From a virus: a DNA stretch of 54,733 nucleotides. The notes below the pieces were generated by a model. The model made no database searches. It was not told where the DNA came from and worked only from the letters and a program-made list of their open reading frames with translations. The number at the start of each line of letters is the position of its first letter. The stretch's first letter is position 1. This document shows, one piece after another, positions 35,389 to 41,549 of the stretch. The translations under genes were made by a program, and so were the position numbers. Location: positions 1 to 54,733 of IMG/VR virus record IMGVR_UViG_3300046492_000612. One strand, written 5' to 3'.

Positions 35389-35435
35389 GCCATTGCCTAA
35401 CCATCTTTCCAAGAGGCTAAATTAGGCAATGCTTA
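35362..35435. promoter_or_regulatory. Repressor/Cro operators between cro and cI
   Basis: Three related sites: 35362-35378 (ATAAGG CATTA CCTTAT, a palindrome), 35387-35400 (inverse of TTAGGCAATGGCTT) and 35422-35435 (TTAGGCAATGCTTA), which overlaps the repressor start codon. The same motif occurs twice at 41550-41588. Confidence 0.7.
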
Positions 35436-36292
35436 CCGGACCGGATTTAGGCGCTGCCATCGAGGCCGCGCGGATCGCCAAGGGCGTATCCAAAAAACAA
35501 CTCGCAGACGACTTCTCCGTGAAGCCTCCGTCGATACAGGGCTGGGTAAAAAACGGCAGGATCGATAAGTCCAAGCTCATGGACGTGATCGCGTACTTCG
35601 CTGGCGTGGTGGGGCCTGAGCATTGGGGGCTGCGCCCAGGCTTCTCTTACGAAAATTTGCAGGATGAGGATGGCAAGGTCGTCGGCGAGGTTGCCCGCGA
35701 AGGAATCACTTTCCGCTCCGTGCCGACCGTTTCAGCCGCCGATCAGCTTCGGGCTGCCCTCTCCAAGGTAAAAGGCTTCAGCGCCGAAACACGCCAGCGC
35801 ATTGCGGCAGCCGCCGAGCATGGTGACAACGTCATCACCGTCGACTTCTCGCGCCCAGGCCAGGTCGGCGACGAGGTGTGGATTGCCCACTACGACGTGC
35901 GCGCCGCGATGGGCGGCGGCCAGATCCCACACGAATACCCTGAAATGCTCCAGGACATCAGGGTCAGCCCGCGGCACCTGCGCGAGATGGGCGTGACCTT
36001 CAAGGAGCACTTCCACCTCAAGATGATCACCGGCTGGGGCCAGTCGATGGCGCCGACGATCAAGGACCGCGACCCGCTGTTGGTGGACGTCACGATCCGC
36101 GAGTTCACAGGCGACGGGATCTACCTCTTCTCCCACGACGAGATGCTCTACGTGAAGCGCCTTCAGAAGAAGGGAAAATCGCTCTTCAAGATGATCTCGG
36201 ACAACAAGCACCACGACCCAGAGGATATTCGGGTGGACGACACCCATATCCTGGCGCGTGTGCTGTACGTGTGGAACGGGCAGCCGGTTTAA
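35429..36292 (+). CDS. cI: CI-type repressor with S24 peptidase domain
   Basis: A 287-residue protein. N-terminal helix-turn-helix (GVSKKQLADDFSVKPPSIQGWVKNGR, residues 19-44). C-terminal LexA/S24 domain with nucleophile Ser206 (GWGQSMAPTI) and Lys243 (MLYVKRL); RAAMGGG (158-164) lies where the family has its cut site. Keeps lysogeny by blocking the early promoters and should be inactivated by RecA after DNA damage. No good Shine-Dalgarno precedes the ATG and an operator covers it, so a leaderless transcript is likely, as in lambda. Confidence 0.93.
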   Translation: MLTGPDLGAAIEAARIAKGVSKKQLADDFSVKPPSIQGWVKNGRIDKSKLMDVIAYFAGVVGPEHWGLRPGFSYENLQDEDGKVVGEVAREGITFRSVPTVSAADQLRAALSKVKGFSAETRQRIAAAAEHGDNVITVDFSRPGQVGDEVWIAHYDVRAAMGGGQIPHEYPEMLQDIRVSPRHLREMGVTFKEHFHLKMITGWGQSMAPTIKDRDPLLVDVTIREFTGDGIYLFSHDEMLYVKRLQKKGKSLFKMISDNKHHDPEDIRVDDTHILARVLYVWNGQPV

Positions 36293-36322
36293 CAAGGACG
36301 ACTGAGGCTAAAAGGACAAGCA

Positions 36323-36814
36323 ATGCGCACCTACATTTTCGCAGTACTGTTGGCGGGCGCCCTTGCCGGCTGCGGCTCGCATGTTGTTGATTATTCGCCG
36401 ACGCCGCTGCCGGCCAATGACAAGCAGCGAGCCGCATCATTCGTCGAGCAGGCGTTTTACGAAGACGCCGGCAAAAATCGCCCATCCAGCGTGTTGGTGA
36501 CGGATCGCTATATCCTGCTCAGCAACGGGATTATCTCGAAGACCTCCAGCTTCGGTAGCGCAGTGCCGCTCGGAACTGGGGCGATTGCTGCGGGTGATGC
36601 AACGACGGTGACGAAAGAAATGGGGCAGCGGCTTTACTTCAATAGCATGACCTCCCCGCTGATCCGGCAGAAGAACGGTCGAGAGAATCGCTTTGTGGTG
36701 ATGTTGCGCCGTCAGGATGGCTCTACGCTAAGGGCAGTAAATGCACGAAGCATGATGGAGGCTAAGCGTTTTGCAGATGCATTTGAGACGCTGAGGCTTT
36801 CGTCGCCTAACTGA
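36323..36814 (+). CDS. Accessory lipoprotein downstream of cI
   Basis: A 163-residue predicted lipoprotein: MRTYIFAVLLAGALAGC with Cys17. The mature part has VLVTDRYILLSNGIISKT, then a strand-rich body and a C-terminal helix (SMMEAKRFADAFETL), a PH-like or YbbR-like outline. AAGGA seven bases upstream. It is only 30 bases after cI on the same strand, so it should be expressed in lysogens. A surface or superinfection role is a guess. Not related by eye to the 114-residue lipoproteins. Confidence 0.75.
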   Translation: MRTYIFAVLLAGALAGCGSHVVDYSPTPLPANDKQRAASFVEQAFYEDAGKNRPSSVLVTDRYILLSNGIISKTSSFGSAVPLGTGAIAAGDATTVTKEMGQRLYFNSMTSPLIRQKNGRENRFVVMLRRQDGSTLRAVNARSMMEAKRFADAFETLRLSSPN

Positions 36815-36828
36815 ATCGAGGCTATACC

Positions 36829-37089
36829 ATGACCCTGACCAAGGCCAACCAAGAGCTGCGCCGCCACCTGCTAGGGCTCGCCTCCGACCTGAAATGGTCG
36901 GCAGTCGAGCTTGTCCAGATTGCCGGCCGTCTCAGCGCTGCGGGCAATGAGCCAGATGCGGAGGCCGTCCGCAGGATGTGCAGCATCCTCCGTAGTGAAG
37001 AGCTGCGCCTGAGCGGGTTGGTAGACGAGATTCAGGATGGCGCTATCGTACGAGTCCGACCGGAGGATGACGAGCATGAGCCTGACTAA
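36829..37089 (+). CDS. Small helical protein, tandem paralogue 1
   Basis: An 86-residue protein starting MTLTKANQELRRHLLGLAS. Helical and charged. The start and the C-terminal LSGLVDEIQDGAIVRV match the next gene's MSLTKPNQELRR and LRGYADEVKD, so the two arose by tandem duplication. Role unknown. The end overlaps the next gene by 14 bases. Confidence 0.65.
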   Translation: MTLTKANQELRRHLLGLASDLKWSAVELVQIAGRLSAAGNEPDAEAVRRMCSILRSEELRLSGLVDEIQDGAIVRVRPEDDEHEPD

Positions 37090-37294
37090 GCCGAATCAAG
37101 AGTTGCGCCGCGAACTCAGTGGGGCTGCCAACCGCATCGAGGACTTCGCCGGTGAACTGTTTCGCCAGGCCAAGGACACTCCGCCCGAAGATTTTATGAA
37201 AGCGATGGAGAAGATTGAGAGCCTGCATGTGCTGGCCGATCGGCTCCGGGGCTATGCCGATGAAGTGAAGGACAGCAAAATTACAAGGGAATAA
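37076..37294 (+). CDS. Small helical protein, tandem paralogue 2
   Basis: A 72-residue protein starting MSLTKPNQELRRELSGAAN, with FAGELFRQAKDTPPEDF and LRGYADEVKDSKITRE. Paralogue of the preceding gene. An upstream ATG (37037) adds only residues read out of frame from the previous gene and is rejected. Role unknown. Confidence 0.65.
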   Translation: MSLTKPNQELRRELSGAANRIEDFAGELFRQAKDTPPEDFMKAMEKIESLHVLADRLRGYADEVKDSKITRE

Positions 37295-37297
37295 GCC

Positions 37298-37477
37298 ATG
37301 CAGACGAAGGATCGTAACGCCCAGAGCGAGAGAGACGCCCTCACCTACCTGGCGCATGATGCCAGGCGAATCATTGCCTCGTATCAGGATCAGCCCCATT
37401 TGAGGGAGACACTTATCAGAGCGCTGTGTAGCAGGCTCTCGGATGGGGTGATTGCCAAGGCCAATCGGAGCGGCTGA
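37298..37477 (+). CDS. 59-residue protein after the tandem pair, unknown
   Basis: Starts MQTKDRNAQSERDALTYLAH and ends KANRSG. AGGGA lies seven bases upstream and three bases separate it from the previous stop. Helical, charged. The 3' end of the gene aligns at DNA level with the 3' part of paralogue 2 (GCC-ATCGG near the stop), and the next bases encode a shifted GYADEV peptide, so the reading frame may be a truncated form of a longer gene. Confidence 0.5.
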   Translation: MQTKDRNAQSERDALTYLAHDARRIIASYQDQPHLRETLIRALCSRLSDGVIAKANRSG

Positions 37478-37478
37478 A

Positions 37479-37538
37479 GGGTATGCGGATGAGGTGCGGG
37501 ATGGGATGGTGGTGCGAAGCGTAGCTGAAAGGGCCTGA
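37479..37538 (+). pseudogene. Remnant of a third tandem paralogue
   Basis: In a frame shifted relative to the 59-residue gene, these bases encode GYADEVRDGMVVRSVAERA and a stop. This matches the ends of the two upstream paralogues (GYADEVKD in one, VDEIQDGAIVRV in the other). No start codon or ribosome binding site belongs to it. It is the tail of a third copy cut off by frameshift. Confidence 0.65.
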
Positions 37539-37652
37539 GCCCTCCGTTCGTCGCTTGCAATCAATTGCAAACCACCTCAAGAAACGCACTGTACGGCCGA
37601 AATAATGCTTGAACCGCTACGGTTTTCAGGCATCTGACCTATAGTCACATCG

Positions 37653-37688
37653 CGCGCCACAAAACGTAACCTAGCATTTCGTGGCGCG
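37653..37688 (-). repeat. 36-bp palindromic element, copy C (intergenic)
   Basis: Arms CGCGCCAC and GTGGCGCG, 36 bases. It lies in the gap before the exported protein and toxin genes, ending 8 bases upstream of a strong promoter -35. Confidence 0.8.
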
Positions 37689-37696
37689 GGAATTTG

Positions 37697-37724
37697 TTGA
37701 CTGCTGTTGTGGGATAGCGATAAT
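37697..37724 (+). promoter_or_regulatory. Promoter of the exported protein / YafO unit
   Basis: TTGACT, 16 bases, GATAAT on the plus strand, about 66 bases before the ATG at 37791. Each hexamer differs from consensus at one base. Confidence 0.65.
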
Positions 37725-37790
37725 CGGCACCCAAGCGGATATGGTGGTTCGCTTTTCAATTGTATTGCACGGATGCAACGGAGGCAGAAA

Positions 37791-38351
37791 ATGAAATCGG
37801 CTAAGCGCCAACCGTTCGCGATGCAAGCTGCATTGACCCTAGCCTTGGGAGTCTCTGCGTCTTTCATGCACGTTGCTGCCTCGCCTGTGCCCACAAGCGC
37901 AGTCGTAGAAAGCCGGAAGGATTTAGAAGCCAAAGATCTTGAGCCGTTACAAAAAGCGAAGCTCAGAGCTAGCATAAAAAAAGCTATGGCAGGGCTGAAG
38001 AAGCTCAATGAGTTTCTCGCCGGCTGCGGCAATGTGATAGTAAGTGGCGAAGACATCCCCATGCACGCCATCGTAGGCGAGCCATTCACACAAATTGCAG
38101 AAAATTTTCGCGAAGTCGAAAGCGCAATGAAGGACAAATGGACTGCATTTGCAGACATGCCGATCATCAACGATGAGCTGATGGCGCTCAGACGCTCTCT
38201 GGCAACCGCTCGTTCGCGTGCATCTCAGAATGCGGTAATGGTAAAGCAGCGTATCAACATTCCAGAAACCGTGGCGTCGGACATGGATCTGGATGGGCTT
38301 TACGAGCTTGCTGAGCTCTCCACCAAGCGACTCCATCTTCTGGTCAGCTAA
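37791..38351 (+). CDS. Exported protein upstream of a YafO toxin, unknown
   Basis: A 186-residue protein. MKSAKRQ, then a hydrophobic stretch to about residue 30 (AALTLALGVSASFMHVAASP) looks like a Sec signal peptide with AA-S cleavage. The rest is helical (AKLRASIKKAMAGLKKLNEF, DELMALRRSLATARSRAS). Not recognised and unlike the Phd-type YafN antitoxin. GGAGG precedes the start. The toxin gene follows after 10 bases, so the two are one unit; whether this is an antitoxin or a bystander is open. Confidence 0.65.
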   Translation: MKSAKRQPFAMQAALTLALGVSASFMHVAASPVPTSAVVESRKDLEAKDLEPLQKAKLRASIKKAMAGLKKLNEFLAGCGNVIVSGEDIPMHAIVGEPFTQIAENFREVESAMKDKWTAFADMPIINDELMALRRSLATARSRASQNAVMVKQRINIPETVASDMDLDGLYELAELSTKRLHLLVS

Positions 38352-38361
38352 GCGACTTTGA

Positions 38362-38802
38362 ATGCCATCCATAGTCGAGTTCAACCCCGAAACGTACGAA
38401 GACCTCTTCCAGCCAATTCTGACGGCTTACCCTGATCTTCTAGATAATCTGGTCGCGGATTTTGCTCGCTACATCGACTCCGATCGCCTTGTACTTCCCG
38501 AATATTTCGGCTGTGACGTAGCGTATACGCAGCCGGAAGAAGCGTATCGTGCTGGCCTTATGCATATTCACCTAGCAGTTCCACCGGTGCAGTTTCCCGC
38601 CAAAAAACCTCAGGCTGATAGGAAGTGCCCGAGGGGAGACTCAGCCCAAGATGCGGCTCTGGTCTATGCGCAGGGACTATACGAGGAGGACAGGTATAGC
38701 CTTATTGCTATATTGCACCCAGATGCGCACGGCAAGGCGAGAGATCGGTTGATTATGCAAAGGCTAGCAAGGGTGGCGGCGCGTTTTAGAGACAAATACT
38801 GA
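38362..38802 (+). CDS. YafO-family ribosome-dependent mRNA interferase toxin
   Basis: A 146-residue protein. Residues 33-146 match the YafO pattern from end to end: ADFARYIDSDRLVLPEYFG, MHIHLAVPPVQF, AALVYAQGLYEEDRYSLIAIL, PDAHGKARD and a final RFRDKY. E. coli YafO cuts mRNA at the ribosome and is paired with YafN, encoded upstream. Here the upstream gene is unlike YafN. A terminator follows. Start MPSIVEF is in place but has only a weak Shine-Dalgarno, which suggests coupling to the upstream gene. Confidence 0.85.
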   Translation: MPSIVEFNPETYEDLFQPILTAYPDLLDNLVADFARYIDSDRLVLPEYFGCDVAYTQPEEAYRAGLMHIHLAVPPVQFPAKKPQADRKCPRGDSAQDAALVYAQGLYEEDRYSLIAILHPDAHGKARDRLIMQRLARVAARFRDKY

Positions 38803-38813
38803 TAAAGCCATAG

Positions 38814-38837
38814 AGCCCGGCCCAGCGCCGGGCTTTT
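38814..38837 (+). terminator. Terminator after the YafO toxin
   Basis: AGCCCGGC, loop of five bases, GCCGGGCT then TTTTCGTTT on the plus strand. Confidence 0.85.
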
Positions 38838-38962
38838 CGTTTCCGTCCTCCCCACCTGGCCGCGTACTCCATTCCTCCGGGGGATTTAACCGAGGCGATC
38901 AACGGCATTTGCTCCGCGTGAGACTGGACTAAAGTCCTAGGTTCGCAAAGGAGGAAATCAGC

Positions 38963-39181
38963 ATGGTCCTACCCAGCACTGCAGCTGATATGCGAGCACT
39001 GCTGCTCGATCAATATCCCTGGATGGCCGACAACGTGGCGAAGCTCTCGGATTTTGAATTGCTGGCGCTCATGGTCAAGGCTTACCCGCAGGCCATCGCC
39101 GTCGTTGAGGCAGAGATTACAGCGCGGGATCGGCAGCTAGACGAAATCGCGCGAGCACTTTTCTCCCCTATCCCCCATTAA
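38963..39181 (+). CDS. Small accessory protein, unknown
   Basis: A 72-residue helical acidic protein starting MVLPSTAADMRALLLDQYPW, with FELLALMVKAYPQAIAVVEAEI. AAAGGAGG lies eight bases before the ATG. A small palindrome GGACT-AA-AGTCC sits 25 bases further upstream. It is a monocistronic unit after the toxin terminator. Not recognised. Confidence 0.65.
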   Translation: MVLPSTAADMRALLLDQYPWMADNVAKLSDFELLALMVKAYPQAIAVVEAEITARDRQLDEIARALFSPIPH

Positions 39182-39332
39182 CAGTGCAGGGCTTCTCGTT
39201 TCAGCTATCCCGCCTGACCCCGTAGCCCCCTGTCGGATGACAGCTTGGCATCTGGCGCCACACTCCAGCGCGCATGGTATTCCAGGCGCGCCCTGCTAAT
39301 CTCTGTAGGGAACACAAGCGAAAGGGATTTCC

Positions 39333-39794
39333 ATGAAAACAAGCACAATTCTCCTCATCAGCTTGGCCTTCCTCACCGGCTGCGTAAGTGAGCAGAAGAA
39401 TAATGGTCACCCTGCTACGCCGATCTCAATCCCGTCTCTGGGATTAAATCTAGACGCTGCATCGGGCCGGACGGAAATATTGATCACCGTGAAGAGTGAG
39501 GCTCCCAGGCCACTGAAGACCGTTCGGGTCTTCCTGGCGCTTTATAATGCTAACCGGACACGTATCAACGCCATAGATGAGCCTGTTGAGGTCCTAGGTC
39601 CGATAAATCCAGGCCAAAGCCTCGGGCCGCTGGAAAAGGTACTATCTGCCGGGCAAGGCGCCTTTTGTGTCGAGGTCGTACGTGTGGAAGCTGTCGCGTT
39701 GGACTACTCCACTCGAATTTCGAGTGGTCATGAAGCTGCAAATCTGGTGGCAGGTGGCAACGGATCGGTGTGCACTTTCAAAACAGCTGGTTGA
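39333..39794 (+). CDS. Accessory lipoprotein
   Basis: A 153-residue predicted lipoprotein: MKTSTILLISLAFLTGC with Cys17, then a beta-rich domain (EILITVKSEAPRPLKTVRVFLALYN, GPLEKVLSAGQGAFCVEVVRVEAV) resembling an Ig-like or FxLYD-type fold. AAAGGGA upstream. It is the fourth lipoprotein gene in the prophage. Role unknown. Confidence 0.7.
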   Translation: MKTSTILLISLAFLTGCVSEQKNNGHPATPISIPSLGLNLDAASGRTEILITVKSEAPRPLKTVRVFLALYNANRTRINAIDEPVEVLGPINPGQSLGPLEKVLSAGQGAFCVEVVRVEAVALDYSTRISSGHEAANLVAGGNGSVCTFKTAG

Positions 39795-39909
39795 CCCTGT
39801 AAGGGTGTAGAGGAAGATTCGACTAAAAATTCCGCCGCTGAGCAGTTGGCCCCAAGATTCCTTGGGAGTACCAGGGACGAGCGAATCGTTGTCAATAACT
39901 GGAGCGCCA

Positions 39910-40161
39910 ATGATCTCCCATGACCAGGATTCGTGCTTAGAAGACGCTTTCGTGACCCGCTCCCTGCAGGTCGCGATCGTGATCTCGGACACCAACCCAT
40001 GCGTTGCTCGATACGACCGGCTTATGACCGTTATCACGGGGCTGGTGCTCAGCGGGCAATTGCGGGGTGCAGACGCCGAGCGCTGGATCGCGCGTGCCGA
40101 GAGAATGAGGGATGCTGCCCGCGACGGTTCTGACCATCCCATTCTCCCCATAGGCACCTGA
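39910..40161 (+). CDS. Cassette copy 1, plus-strand gene: 83-residue protein
   Basis: Starts MISHDQDSCLEDAFVTRSL; core YDRLMTVITGLVLSGQLRGADAERWI, helical end. GGAG six bases before the ATG decides the start over an upstream ATG at 39862. A homologous gene of the same length (252 bases with stop) at 40612-40863 is broken by a stop codon. It faces the 63-residue minus-strand gene, and the two make a convergent pair. Function unknown. Confidence 0.65.
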   Translation: MISHDQDSCLEDAFVTRSLQVAIVISDTNPCVARYDRLMTVITGLVLSGQLRGADAERWIARAERMRDAARDGSDHPILPIGT

Positions 40162-40177
40162 GCGCAGAAAGCACCAT

Positions 40178-40200
40178 AGCCCGCAACTGAGCGGGCTTTC
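40178..40200. terminator. Hairpin between convergent cassette genes (copy 1)
   Basis: AGCCCGC, loop AACTGA, GCGGGCT followed by TTC. Situated between the two convergent stops; could end both transcripts, though the T tract is short. Confidence 0.5.
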
Positions 40201-40213
40201 CTGTATCTGGCGC

Positions 40214-40405
40214 CTAGCTCGCGGCGACATTGGCAGCCTTGTCTTCCAAGTGAAGTCTGGTCGCCAAGCGAGCAGCGTCTTCATCGGTCTTCACATAGTG
40301 GGCCTTGCCGTCATGGGCTGTAACCTTGAAGGCGCAGGCGAGGCCTTGCATCAGAAAATAGGAAGGCAGCTCGTAGCCCTCCACTCGTTTTACGGTGACG
40401 GCCAT
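40214..40405 (-). CDS. Cassette copy 1, minus-strand gene: 63-residue protein
   Basis: Starts MAVTVKRVEGYELPSYFL. The pattern V-V-VEG-P, then A-KVTAHDGKAHYVKTDEDAARLATRLHLEDKA matches the protein encoded at 40869-41072 in the same relative position. GAGG seven bases before the ATG. A small alpha/beta domain, not recognised. Confidence 0.65.
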   Translation of the reverse strand: MAVTVKRVEGYELPSYFLMQGLACAFKVTAHDGKAHYVKTDEDAARLATRLHLEDKAANVAAS

Positions 40406-40611
40406 GATGATGCCTCTGAAGATTCGCTCAACCATACGCGCATCCCAGAAGAAGGCACGGAATCATTTCTGTAAAGAAAAAATAGGCCTCGTTGGATTTC
40501 TTATTAACCTAAGCTTCAGCCTGGGGTTCCGGGATAGCTCAGCGCTCAACGCTGAGCCTGGGGACGGGTTGGTGCCAGTCGAACCTGAGCAATGAATGCC
40601 GGAGAGCTACC

Positions 40612-40863
40612 TTGGGAAACGAATGGGATCCAATCCTGAAAAGAGCTTTCGTCACCGCTTCTCGCGGGGCTAACGTTTCCGTATCAAGTACGACGCCGGC
40701 ATAAGCTCGCCACCAACGCAGAATGGCTTTTGTTGCCGCCCTGGTGTTCGACGGTCAGCTGCAGGGGAAAGAGGTTGAATCGTTGATCTCGCAGATTGAA
40801 GAAAATCTGCACGCGGAACTCGAATTCGAGGCAGTGACGAATTCCCACCCCACAAGCACATAG
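40612..40863 (+). pseudogene. Cassette copy 2, plus-strand gene broken by a stop codon
   Basis: From a TTG start with GGAGAG upstream the frame reads MGNEWDPILKRAFVTASRG, stops at TAA (40702-40704, codon 31) and continues in frame with RRMAFVAALVFDGQLQGKEVE to TAG at 40861. It matches the intact 83-residue protein at 39910 (AFVT, then TVITGLVLSGQLRG) and has exactly the same length of 84 codons. A single nonsense change would explain it. A 46-residue fragment could restart at 40723. Confidence 0.75.
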
Positions 40864-40868
40864 CTCCC

Positions 40869-41072
40869 TTACAGGGCTGTGTCATCCCATAGCCCGGCGC
40901 GCGCTCTGTCTTCACGGTGAAGCTTGAAAGCGAACCTGGCGGCTTCCTCTCCAGTGCGAAAGTAGTGCACAGACCCGTCCCAGCTGGTCACGCGGTAGGC
41001 CCACCTCGCCCCTTCATTCCTCATATGCTGCGGCACGTCAGCGCCTTCTACAGGTTGAACTGATACACCCAT
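40869..41072 (-). CDS. Cassette copy 2, minus-strand gene: 67-residue protein
   Basis: Starts MGVSVQPVEGADVPQHM, then WAYRVTSWDGSVHYFRTGEEAARFAFKLHREDRA. Clear paralogue of the 63-residue protein at 40214. GGAG seven bases before the ATG. It converges on the pseudogene with five bases between the stops. Unlike its partner it is intact, so it may still be useful to the phage or host. Confidence 0.7.
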   Translation of the reverse strand: MGVSVQPVEGADVPQHMRNEGARWAYRVTSWDGSVHYFRTGEEAARFAFKLHREDRARAGLWDDTAL

Positions 41073-41123
41073 GGCAGCGCTCCGAAATCGACGCAGGAGA
41101 TTAGCATGGGTGCTTAGGCGGAT

Positions 41124-41435
41124 TCAAAAGGGCGCCTCCTCTTCTACCTTTTCCCACTCGTCCACACCTGGCGTTCCCGTCTTCTCCGGCTCTTCCCAGC
41201 GCACCAGCACGCTACCGTCGTCGCGGTACTCCAGCTCCAGCTCGTCGGTCGCGGCCATCTGGCTCAGCGCCTCCTCCCACTCCTGGTCCCCGTCGCTATC
41301 GAGCCGGTGAATCAGCACCCAGCGCTGCAGTTGCGCAATCGGGTGGTTGATCATCTCGGACACCCGCAGGCTCAGCCGCTCCATCCCTAACATTCCCTGG
41401 CGCTCCTGTTGCGCCGCCTCGCTCTGCACTGCCAT
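41124..41435 (-). CDS. DUF1654-type protein
   Basis: A 103-residue protein: MERLSLRVSEMINHPIAQLQRWVLIHRLDSDGDQEWEEALSQM, then ELEYRDDGSVLVRWEEP. This is the pattern of DUF1654, a family seen mainly in Pseudomonas and its phages. GGAGG lies six bases before the ATG. It runs away from the operator cluster at 41550, so it may be under the repressor. Function unknown. Confidence 0.8.
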   Translation of the reverse strand: MAVQSEAAQQERQGMLGMERLSLRVSEMINHPIAQLQRWVLIHRLDSDGDQEWEEALSQMAATDELELEYRDDGSVLVRWEEPEKTGTPGVDEWEKVEEEAPF

Positions 41436-41549
41436 ACCGCACCTCCAAAGCTGTATATCCATCCAGTAATGGCGGAAGCATAGCGGCGCGCGTAGGAAAA
41501 GTGAACGGGGCCTGAATGAAATTTCTTCGGCAGCGCCTTATAAAAATAA

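What the first reader, a model, noticed from the sequence alone, without database searches (positions are those of the whole stretch)
39910..41072. Duplicated convergent two-gene cassette, one copy broken by a stop codon
A plus-strand 83-residue gene facing a minus-strand 63-residue gene (39910-40405) is repeated as 40612-41072. The plus-strand member of copy 2 has the same 84-codon length but a TAA at codon 31, while its minus-strand partner (67 residues) is intact. Convergent pairing kept through duplication suggests the two proteins or transcripts are functionally linked. It could be an undescribed accessory or immunity pair.
Basis: partly seen in the sequence, partly recalled or inferred. 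Interest (0 to 1): 0.66.

Follow-up and report, generated by a model that had tools for sequence, protein, structure and literature searches.

The report
Twin small-gene cargo in phage hotspot
Beside its dormancy-control gene, a Pseudomonas temperate phage carries two old, diverged copies of a tail-to-tail pair of tiny genes, one of them broken; one gene belongs to an unnamed family that lives alone in about a tenth of Pseudomonas species and the other has no known relative, so the pair looks like ordinary, uncharacterised phage cargo and not an obligate two-part system.

Summary
Plus gene P1 (39910-40161) faces minus gene M1 (40214-40405); P2 (40612-40863) faces M2 (40869-41072). M1/M2 share 46% identity and P1/P2 36%, and the similarity peaks in exactly the two annotated frames (Z 29 and 21). 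P2 has TAA at codon 31 (40702-40704). The copies are old: nucleotide identity is 48-53% and no long DNA repeat remains.

The inference that P and M are functionally linked is not supported. M belongs to a previously unnamed ~60-residue family found in 37-40 of 399 Pseudomonas genomes. None of the 31 loci with M examined outside the window has a P relative within 1.5-6 kb, including a prophage with the same gene order. P has no detectable relative anywhere searched.

The setting is informative. The cassettes lie between the CI repressor and a DUF1654 gene. In 129 prophage loci, including the window, this interval varies from 36 to 4,831 bp (this one is longest), and it holds BstA, Kiwa, methyltransferase, HipA-like, YafO and other defence or toxin genes. 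Best reading: lysogenic cargo in the Pseudomonas counterpart of lambda's rex/bstA hotspot, with M acting alone and P2 a recent pseudogene. Function itself is untested.

The parts
39910..40161 (+). P1, 83 aa, intact plus-strand gene of copy 1 (no family)
   Evidence: GGAG about 7 nt before the ATG
40178..40197 (.). GC-rich hairpin AGCCCGC-loop-GCGGGCT in the 52-nt gap between P1 and M1, likely shared terminator
   Evidence: -24.8 kcal/mol, z -2.9 on the + strand; weak T-tract, so it was not listed by the simple scan
40214..40405 (-). M1, 63 aa, member of an unnamed Pseudomonas small-protein family
40612..40863 (+). P2, broken homologue of P1 (TTG start; TAA at codon 31)
40702..40704 (+). in-frame TAA that interrupts P2
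40869..41072 (-). M2, 67 aa, second member of the M family, 5 nt from the end of P2
41124..41462 (-). DUF1654 gene, the conserved right border of the variable interval
   Evidence: Pfam PF07867, 4.7e-25; 129 loci with CI and DUF1654 convergent
35429..36292 (+). CI-type repressor, the conserved left border of the variable interval
   Evidence: homologue found in 131 of 136 DUF1654 loci; homologues annotated CI repressor
38362..38802 (+). YafO-type toxin, other cargo of the same interval
   Evidence: Pfam PF13957, 1.2e-20
36829..37294 (+). Q1 and Q2, a second tandem paralogue pair of small genes in the same interval
   Evidence: 38% identity, E 8e-11; family in 131 of 299 Pseudomonas genomes

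Best explanation
The two P/M cassettes are lysogenic accessory cargo ('morons') of a Pseudomonas lambda-like temperate phage. They lie in the variable interval between the CI repressor and DUF1654, the local counterpart of the cI-downstream site that holds rexAB in lambda and bstA in P22-like phages. Shown: four homologous frames, P2 broken, the M family widespread and without P, and the interval hypervariable with defence and toxin genes in sister prophages. Inferred: rightward genes such as P are read with or after cI in the lysogen; M is read leftward from its own or the DUF1654 side, and the two units end tail to tail at the hairpin. M is a small soluble beta-alpha-beta-beta-alpha protein that works on its own on a host or incoming-phage target. 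P is a separate small, partly helical protein that is dispensable, as the loss of P2 beside intact M2 suggests. The second copy gave a diverged M, kept, and a redundant P, now lost. The likeliest benefit is to the lysogen (superinfection or stress modulation), by guilt by location only.
For: Frame-specific homology of both members. M alone: 40/399 and 37/399 Pseudomonas genomes, searched with two profiles over largely the same sample; no P relative within 1.5-6 kb of the 31 loci with M examined outside the window. L101 (P. caricapapayae prophage) has CI-Q-x-Q-...-M-...-DUF1654 with one M and no P. In lone-M loci the 3' neighbour is convergent in only 8 of 20 (rough gene calls), so convergence is not a property of M. 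Hotspot: convergent CI/DUF1654 in 129 of 137 loci, interval 36-4,831 bp, 167 ORF clusters from 89 distinct intervals; PADLOC hits include BstA 2.6e-119, KwaB 8.4e-103, PDC-M32A 2.8e-158, PD-Lambda-5_B and a type II MTase, Pfam hits HipA_2, GmrSD_N, SocA and YafO. Owen et al. 2021 (PMC8585504) place bstA downstream of cI and call that region a hotspot of mosaic diversity that also holds rexAB. M model pLDDT 88.
Against: P occurs next to M twice in this phage, which chance adjacency explains less well than a unit that moved or duplicated together. P has no relatives, so 'P is dispensable' rests on one broken copy that could be a sequence error. No cargo protein of this phage except the YafO homologue has a known function, and none matches PADLOC. 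M and Q also occur in chromosomes without recognisable phage neighbours, so phage defence is not their only possible role. No expression data.
Confidence: 0.6

Rival explanations
1. P is a toxin or effector and M its antidote: a toxin-antitoxin or immunity pair with convergent genes; copy 2 lost the toxin and kept the antidote, and lone M genes elsewhere are orphan antidotes.
For: P beside M twice; the broken member is P2 while M2 is intact, the expected direction of loss; a YafO-type toxin gene lies 1.1 kb upstream.
Against: M lives without P in every other locus seen; no toxin or antitoxin family hit for P or M; convergent order is unusual for such pairs; no P relative was found near any M.
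Confidence: 0.15
2. P and M are unrelated hitch-hikers: a two-gene DNA segment was captured and later doubled, or captured twice, and adjacency means nothing more.
For: M1 scores slightly higher against lone M genes of other genomes (148, 145) than against M2 (138) and the tree does not join M1 with M2; another small-gene family (Q) is also doubled in this interval.
Against: The same order and tail-to-tail orientation in both copies is more easily explained by one ancestral two-gene unit.
Confidence: 0.3
3. The link is at the transcript level: P and M mRNAs overlap at their 3' ends and regulate each other by convergent transcription.
For: P2 and M2 end 5 nt apart; tail-to-tail order in both copies.
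Against: In copy 1 a 52-nt gap holds a stable hairpin that would end both transcripts; in other loci M faces unrelated genes or none.
Confidence: 0.07
4. P2 is not broken: the TAA is a base-calling or assembly error, or the downstream ATG (40723) restarts a 46-aa product.
For: The reading frame after the stop is as conserved as before it, without frameshifts; P2 keeps a ribosome site.
Against: No ribosome site is apparent before 40723; other genes of the record looked at here are open.
Confidence: 0.2

Closest known systems
cI-downstream accessory hotspot of lambdoid phages (rexAB of lambda, bstA of BTP1/P22-like phages; PMC8585504)
   Same: Variable genes directly downstream of the repressor, same strand, between conserved borders; sister Pseudomonas prophages hold BstA and other defence genes there
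   Different: The far border here is DUF1654 rather than the N gene; P and M resemble neither RexA/B nor BstA
Small superinfection-exclusion or moron proteins of Pseudomonas phages (Olg1 and gene 10 of Fc02, PMC9936078; the 83-aa Tab of JBD26, PMC10884400)
   Same: Size class, host genus, accessory status, lysogen setting
   Different: No sequence comparison was made here; those genes lie upstream of the repressor (Olg1) or in the late operon (Tab)
Type II toxin-antitoxin pairs such as YafNO
   Same: Two small adjacent genes; a YafO homologue lies in the same interval
   Different: Convergent rather than one operon; no family match; M mostly occurs alone

Membership tests
cI-downstream prophage accessory hotspot | Lies directly downstream of a CI-type repressor within a phage | tested here: met
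   CI 35429-36292, cassettes 39910-41072, recombination genes and integrase beyond
cI-downstream prophage accessory hotspot | Content and length vary between otherwise related phages | tested here: met
   129 loci, 36-4,831 bp; 167 ORF clusters; L004, with 99-100% identical genes elsewhere, has only 1,116 bp and no P or M
cI-downstream prophage accessory hotspot | Site holds known defence genes in some members | tested here: met
   BstA, KwaA/KwaB, NsnA, MTase_II, PDC-M32A
cI-downstream prophage accessory hotspot | Genes expressed in the lysogen | not testable with these tools
   needs RNA-seq of a lysogen
Type II toxin-antitoxin module | Toxin and antitoxin in one operon | tested here: not met
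   genes are convergent
Type II toxin-antitoxin module | Sequence match of at least one partner to a toxin or antitoxin family | tested here: not met
Type II toxin-antitoxin module | Toxicity of one partner neutralised by the other | not testable with these tools
   needs expression assays
Obligate P-M two-gene system | Partners co-occur across genomes | tested here: not met
   M in about 10% of Pseudomonas genomes, P relative beside none of the M loci examined
Known fold for M | Structural match to a solved family | tested here: inconclusive
   pLDDT 88 model; no Foldseek match with E below 0.001; best VIA-align Z 4.5, E. coli YaiA Z 4.3

The most novel reading that the evidence does not exclude
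P and M form an undescribed phage-borne effector/antidote pair with convergent genes, and the lone M genes in about 10% of Pseudomonas species are chromosomal antidotes that protect against such phage effectors.
Probability: 0.1. Interest if true: 0.6.

Novelty: new member of a known kind. Interest (0 to 1): 0.33.

Why it matters
The cassette itself is modest. Its value is as a pointer: the CI-DUF1654 interval of Pseudomonas lambda-like prophages is a compact, easily mined hotspot (89 distinct intervals here, many ORF clusters in it unnamed) that holds known anti-phage systems, and M and Q are two unnamed small-protein families shared between these phages and Pseudomonas chromosomes. If M or Q act in phage defence, many strains carry an unrecognised layer of it.

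Tried and rejected
Exact-word scans of IMG/VR and genome contigs with P1, M1, M2, A1 and A2 found no relative, nor did the L101 M protein; a profile search of whole Pseudomonas genomes was needed to find the M family. tblastn against phages and plasmids gave none. Genus-wide P search gave only chance-level hits (best E 0.003, mostly inside unrelated large proteins), none beside an M. Structure searches of M gave no convincing match; P1 folded alone was too uncertain to search (pLDDT 67). The idea that the long antisense ORFs over P (e.g. 39642-40157 minus) are the real genes was rejected by the frame-pair test. Promoter and terminator scans were no better than shuffles. M tree: M1, M2 and three lone M genes unresolved.

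Full report
OBSERVATION. I call the plus-strand members P1 and P2 and the minus-strand members M1 and M2. M1 and M2 align over 57 residues with 46% identity (E 2e-19). P1 and P2 align over 64 residues with 36% identity (E 4e-14). All frame pairs of copy 1 against copy 2 were scored. The P region is most similar in the P frame (109; next best 65) and the M region in the M frame (138; next best 75), with shuffle Z-scores of 21 and 29 and an excess of third-position differences. The four starts have GGAG- or AGAGG-like ribosome sites 6-8 nt upstream (sequence). These are therefore four coding frames, one interrupted by TAA at 40702-40704. The duplication is old: 48-53% nucleotide identity, with no repeat above 16 nt. 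Similarity of P2 to P1 is the same before and after the stop (10/30 and 13/32), so the break is recent, or an error in the record.

SETTING. The window is a 54.7-kb virus record with a CI repressor at 35429-36292 and an integrase at the right end. DNA similarity to named records is limited to short stretches of Pseudomonas phages. The cassettes lie between CI and a DUF1654 gene (41124-41462 minus; Pfam 4.7e-25). Of 137 loci collected from IMG/VR, bacterial genomes, named phages and the window, 129 have CI and DUF1654 facing each other. The interval between them ranges from 36 to 4,831 bp, median 1,587, and the window has the longest. The set contains some near-identical duplicates; it reduces to 89 distinct intervals of more than 250 bp apart from the window, which held 288 ORFs in 167 clusters. 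These ORFs came from a simple greedy caller, so some are not genes. Of 88 longer cluster representatives, several match anti-phage families specifically: BstA (2 members, best 2.6e-119), KwaA and KwaB, PD-Lambda-5_B, a type II cytosine methyltransferase, PDC-M32A and NsnA. Pfam adds HipA_2, GmrSD_N, SocA, DUF4411, YafO and others. The interval is thus a cargo hotspot. The principle is known: Owen et al. 2021 (PMC8585504) describe bstA downstream of cI, note that this region of lambdoid phages is a hotspot of mosaic diversity, and point out that lambda's rexAB sits there.

THE M FAMILY. A profile of M1 and M2 found matches in 40 of 399 Pseudomonas genomes (E <= 0.01). A 15-member profile found 37 of 399 (E <= 1e-6); the two samples largely overlap. 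In a sample of 350 genomes of the class, only the query genome itself matched. Members are about 57-70 residues with the pattern MAVTVKKLEG..P...(R)..G...F.V...DG..Y..(S/T)(D/E)(E)AA.LA..L. No Pfam, PHROGs, NCBIfam or PADLOC family covers them, and no phage or plasmid record was hit. AlphaFold2 gives a confident beta-alpha-beta-beta-alpha model (pLDDT 88, pTM 0.68) without a convincing structural match.

IS THE PAIR A PAIR? No P homologue lies within 1.5 kb (30 loci) or 6 kb (20 of them) of M in other genomes, nor in any of the 275 other loci held, 2.15 Mb. The genus-wide P search gave only chance-level hits. The best test is L101, a P. caricapapayae prophage with the window's gene order, CI - Q - x - Q - other genes - M - regulator - lipoprotein - DUF1654. 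It has one M, on the same strand as DUF1654 as in the window, and no P. Lone M genes have a convergent 3' neighbour in 8 of 20 cases by rough gene calls, so convergence is not typical of the family. M1 is as close to lone M genes as to M2, and the tree is unresolved, so duplication inside this phage is not proven.

OTHER SMALL FAMILIES. Q1 and Q2 (36829-37294) are a second diverged tandem pair whose family occurs in 131 of 299 Pseudomonas genomes. Q sits next to lone M genes in two chromosomes, convergent in one of them (L214, L211). So M's recurrent small neighbour, where it has one, is Q, not P.

MECHANISM. Shown: coding frames, the broken P2, M without P elsewhere, hotspot location. Inferred: expression in the lysogen, independent action of M, dispensability of P. 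Guilt by location makes a lysogen benefit (superinfection or stress modulation) the best guess, but nothing here shows phage resistance or toxicity. The toxin/antidote rival is kept at 0.15, because loss of P2 with M2 intact is the direction such a pair would decay in.

LIMITS. Metagenome contigs could not be scanned. The genome searches sample about 400 Pseudomonas species and use a loose first filter. Gene calls in other loci are mechanical. PADLOC hits were not compared with a background set of prophage proteins, and general ATPase or methyltransferase hits are weak evidence of defence.

Noticed in passing
35429-41462: The CI-DUF1654 interval of Pseudomonas lambda-like prophages is a hypervariable cargo hotspot (36-4,831 bp in 129 loci) that holds BstA, Kiwa, methyltransferase, HipA-like and other defence-type genes and many unnamed ORF clusters.
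   Followed up: partly
36829-37294: A second tandem paralogue pair of small genes (Q1, Q2; 'MTLTKxNQELRR...'); the family occurs in 131 of 299 Pseudomonas genomes, sometimes in tandem arrays (e.g. three copies at G275:C3:78785-79478).
   Followed up: partly
37791-38802: A YafO-type toxin gene (38362-38802) directly behind a 186-aa gene without a family; similar two-gene arrangements lie in P. aeruginosa phages. The 186-aa gene may be its unrecognised partner.
   Followed up: no
L139:1299-1698: In P. entomophila an M gene lies about 130 bp behind a tRNA-Arg gene, a usual site of mobile elements.
   Followed up: no
G040:C2:38700-38855 and 98566-98721: One Pseudomonas genome carries two M genes with the same score 60 kb apart on opposite strands, which suggests a recent inverted duplication.
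   Followed up: no
38963-39181: A 72-aa gene weakly similar (31%, E 1e-5 pairwise) to a gene near the second-closest M homologue (L204:669-908 minus), perhaps another shared small cargo family.
   Followed up: partly
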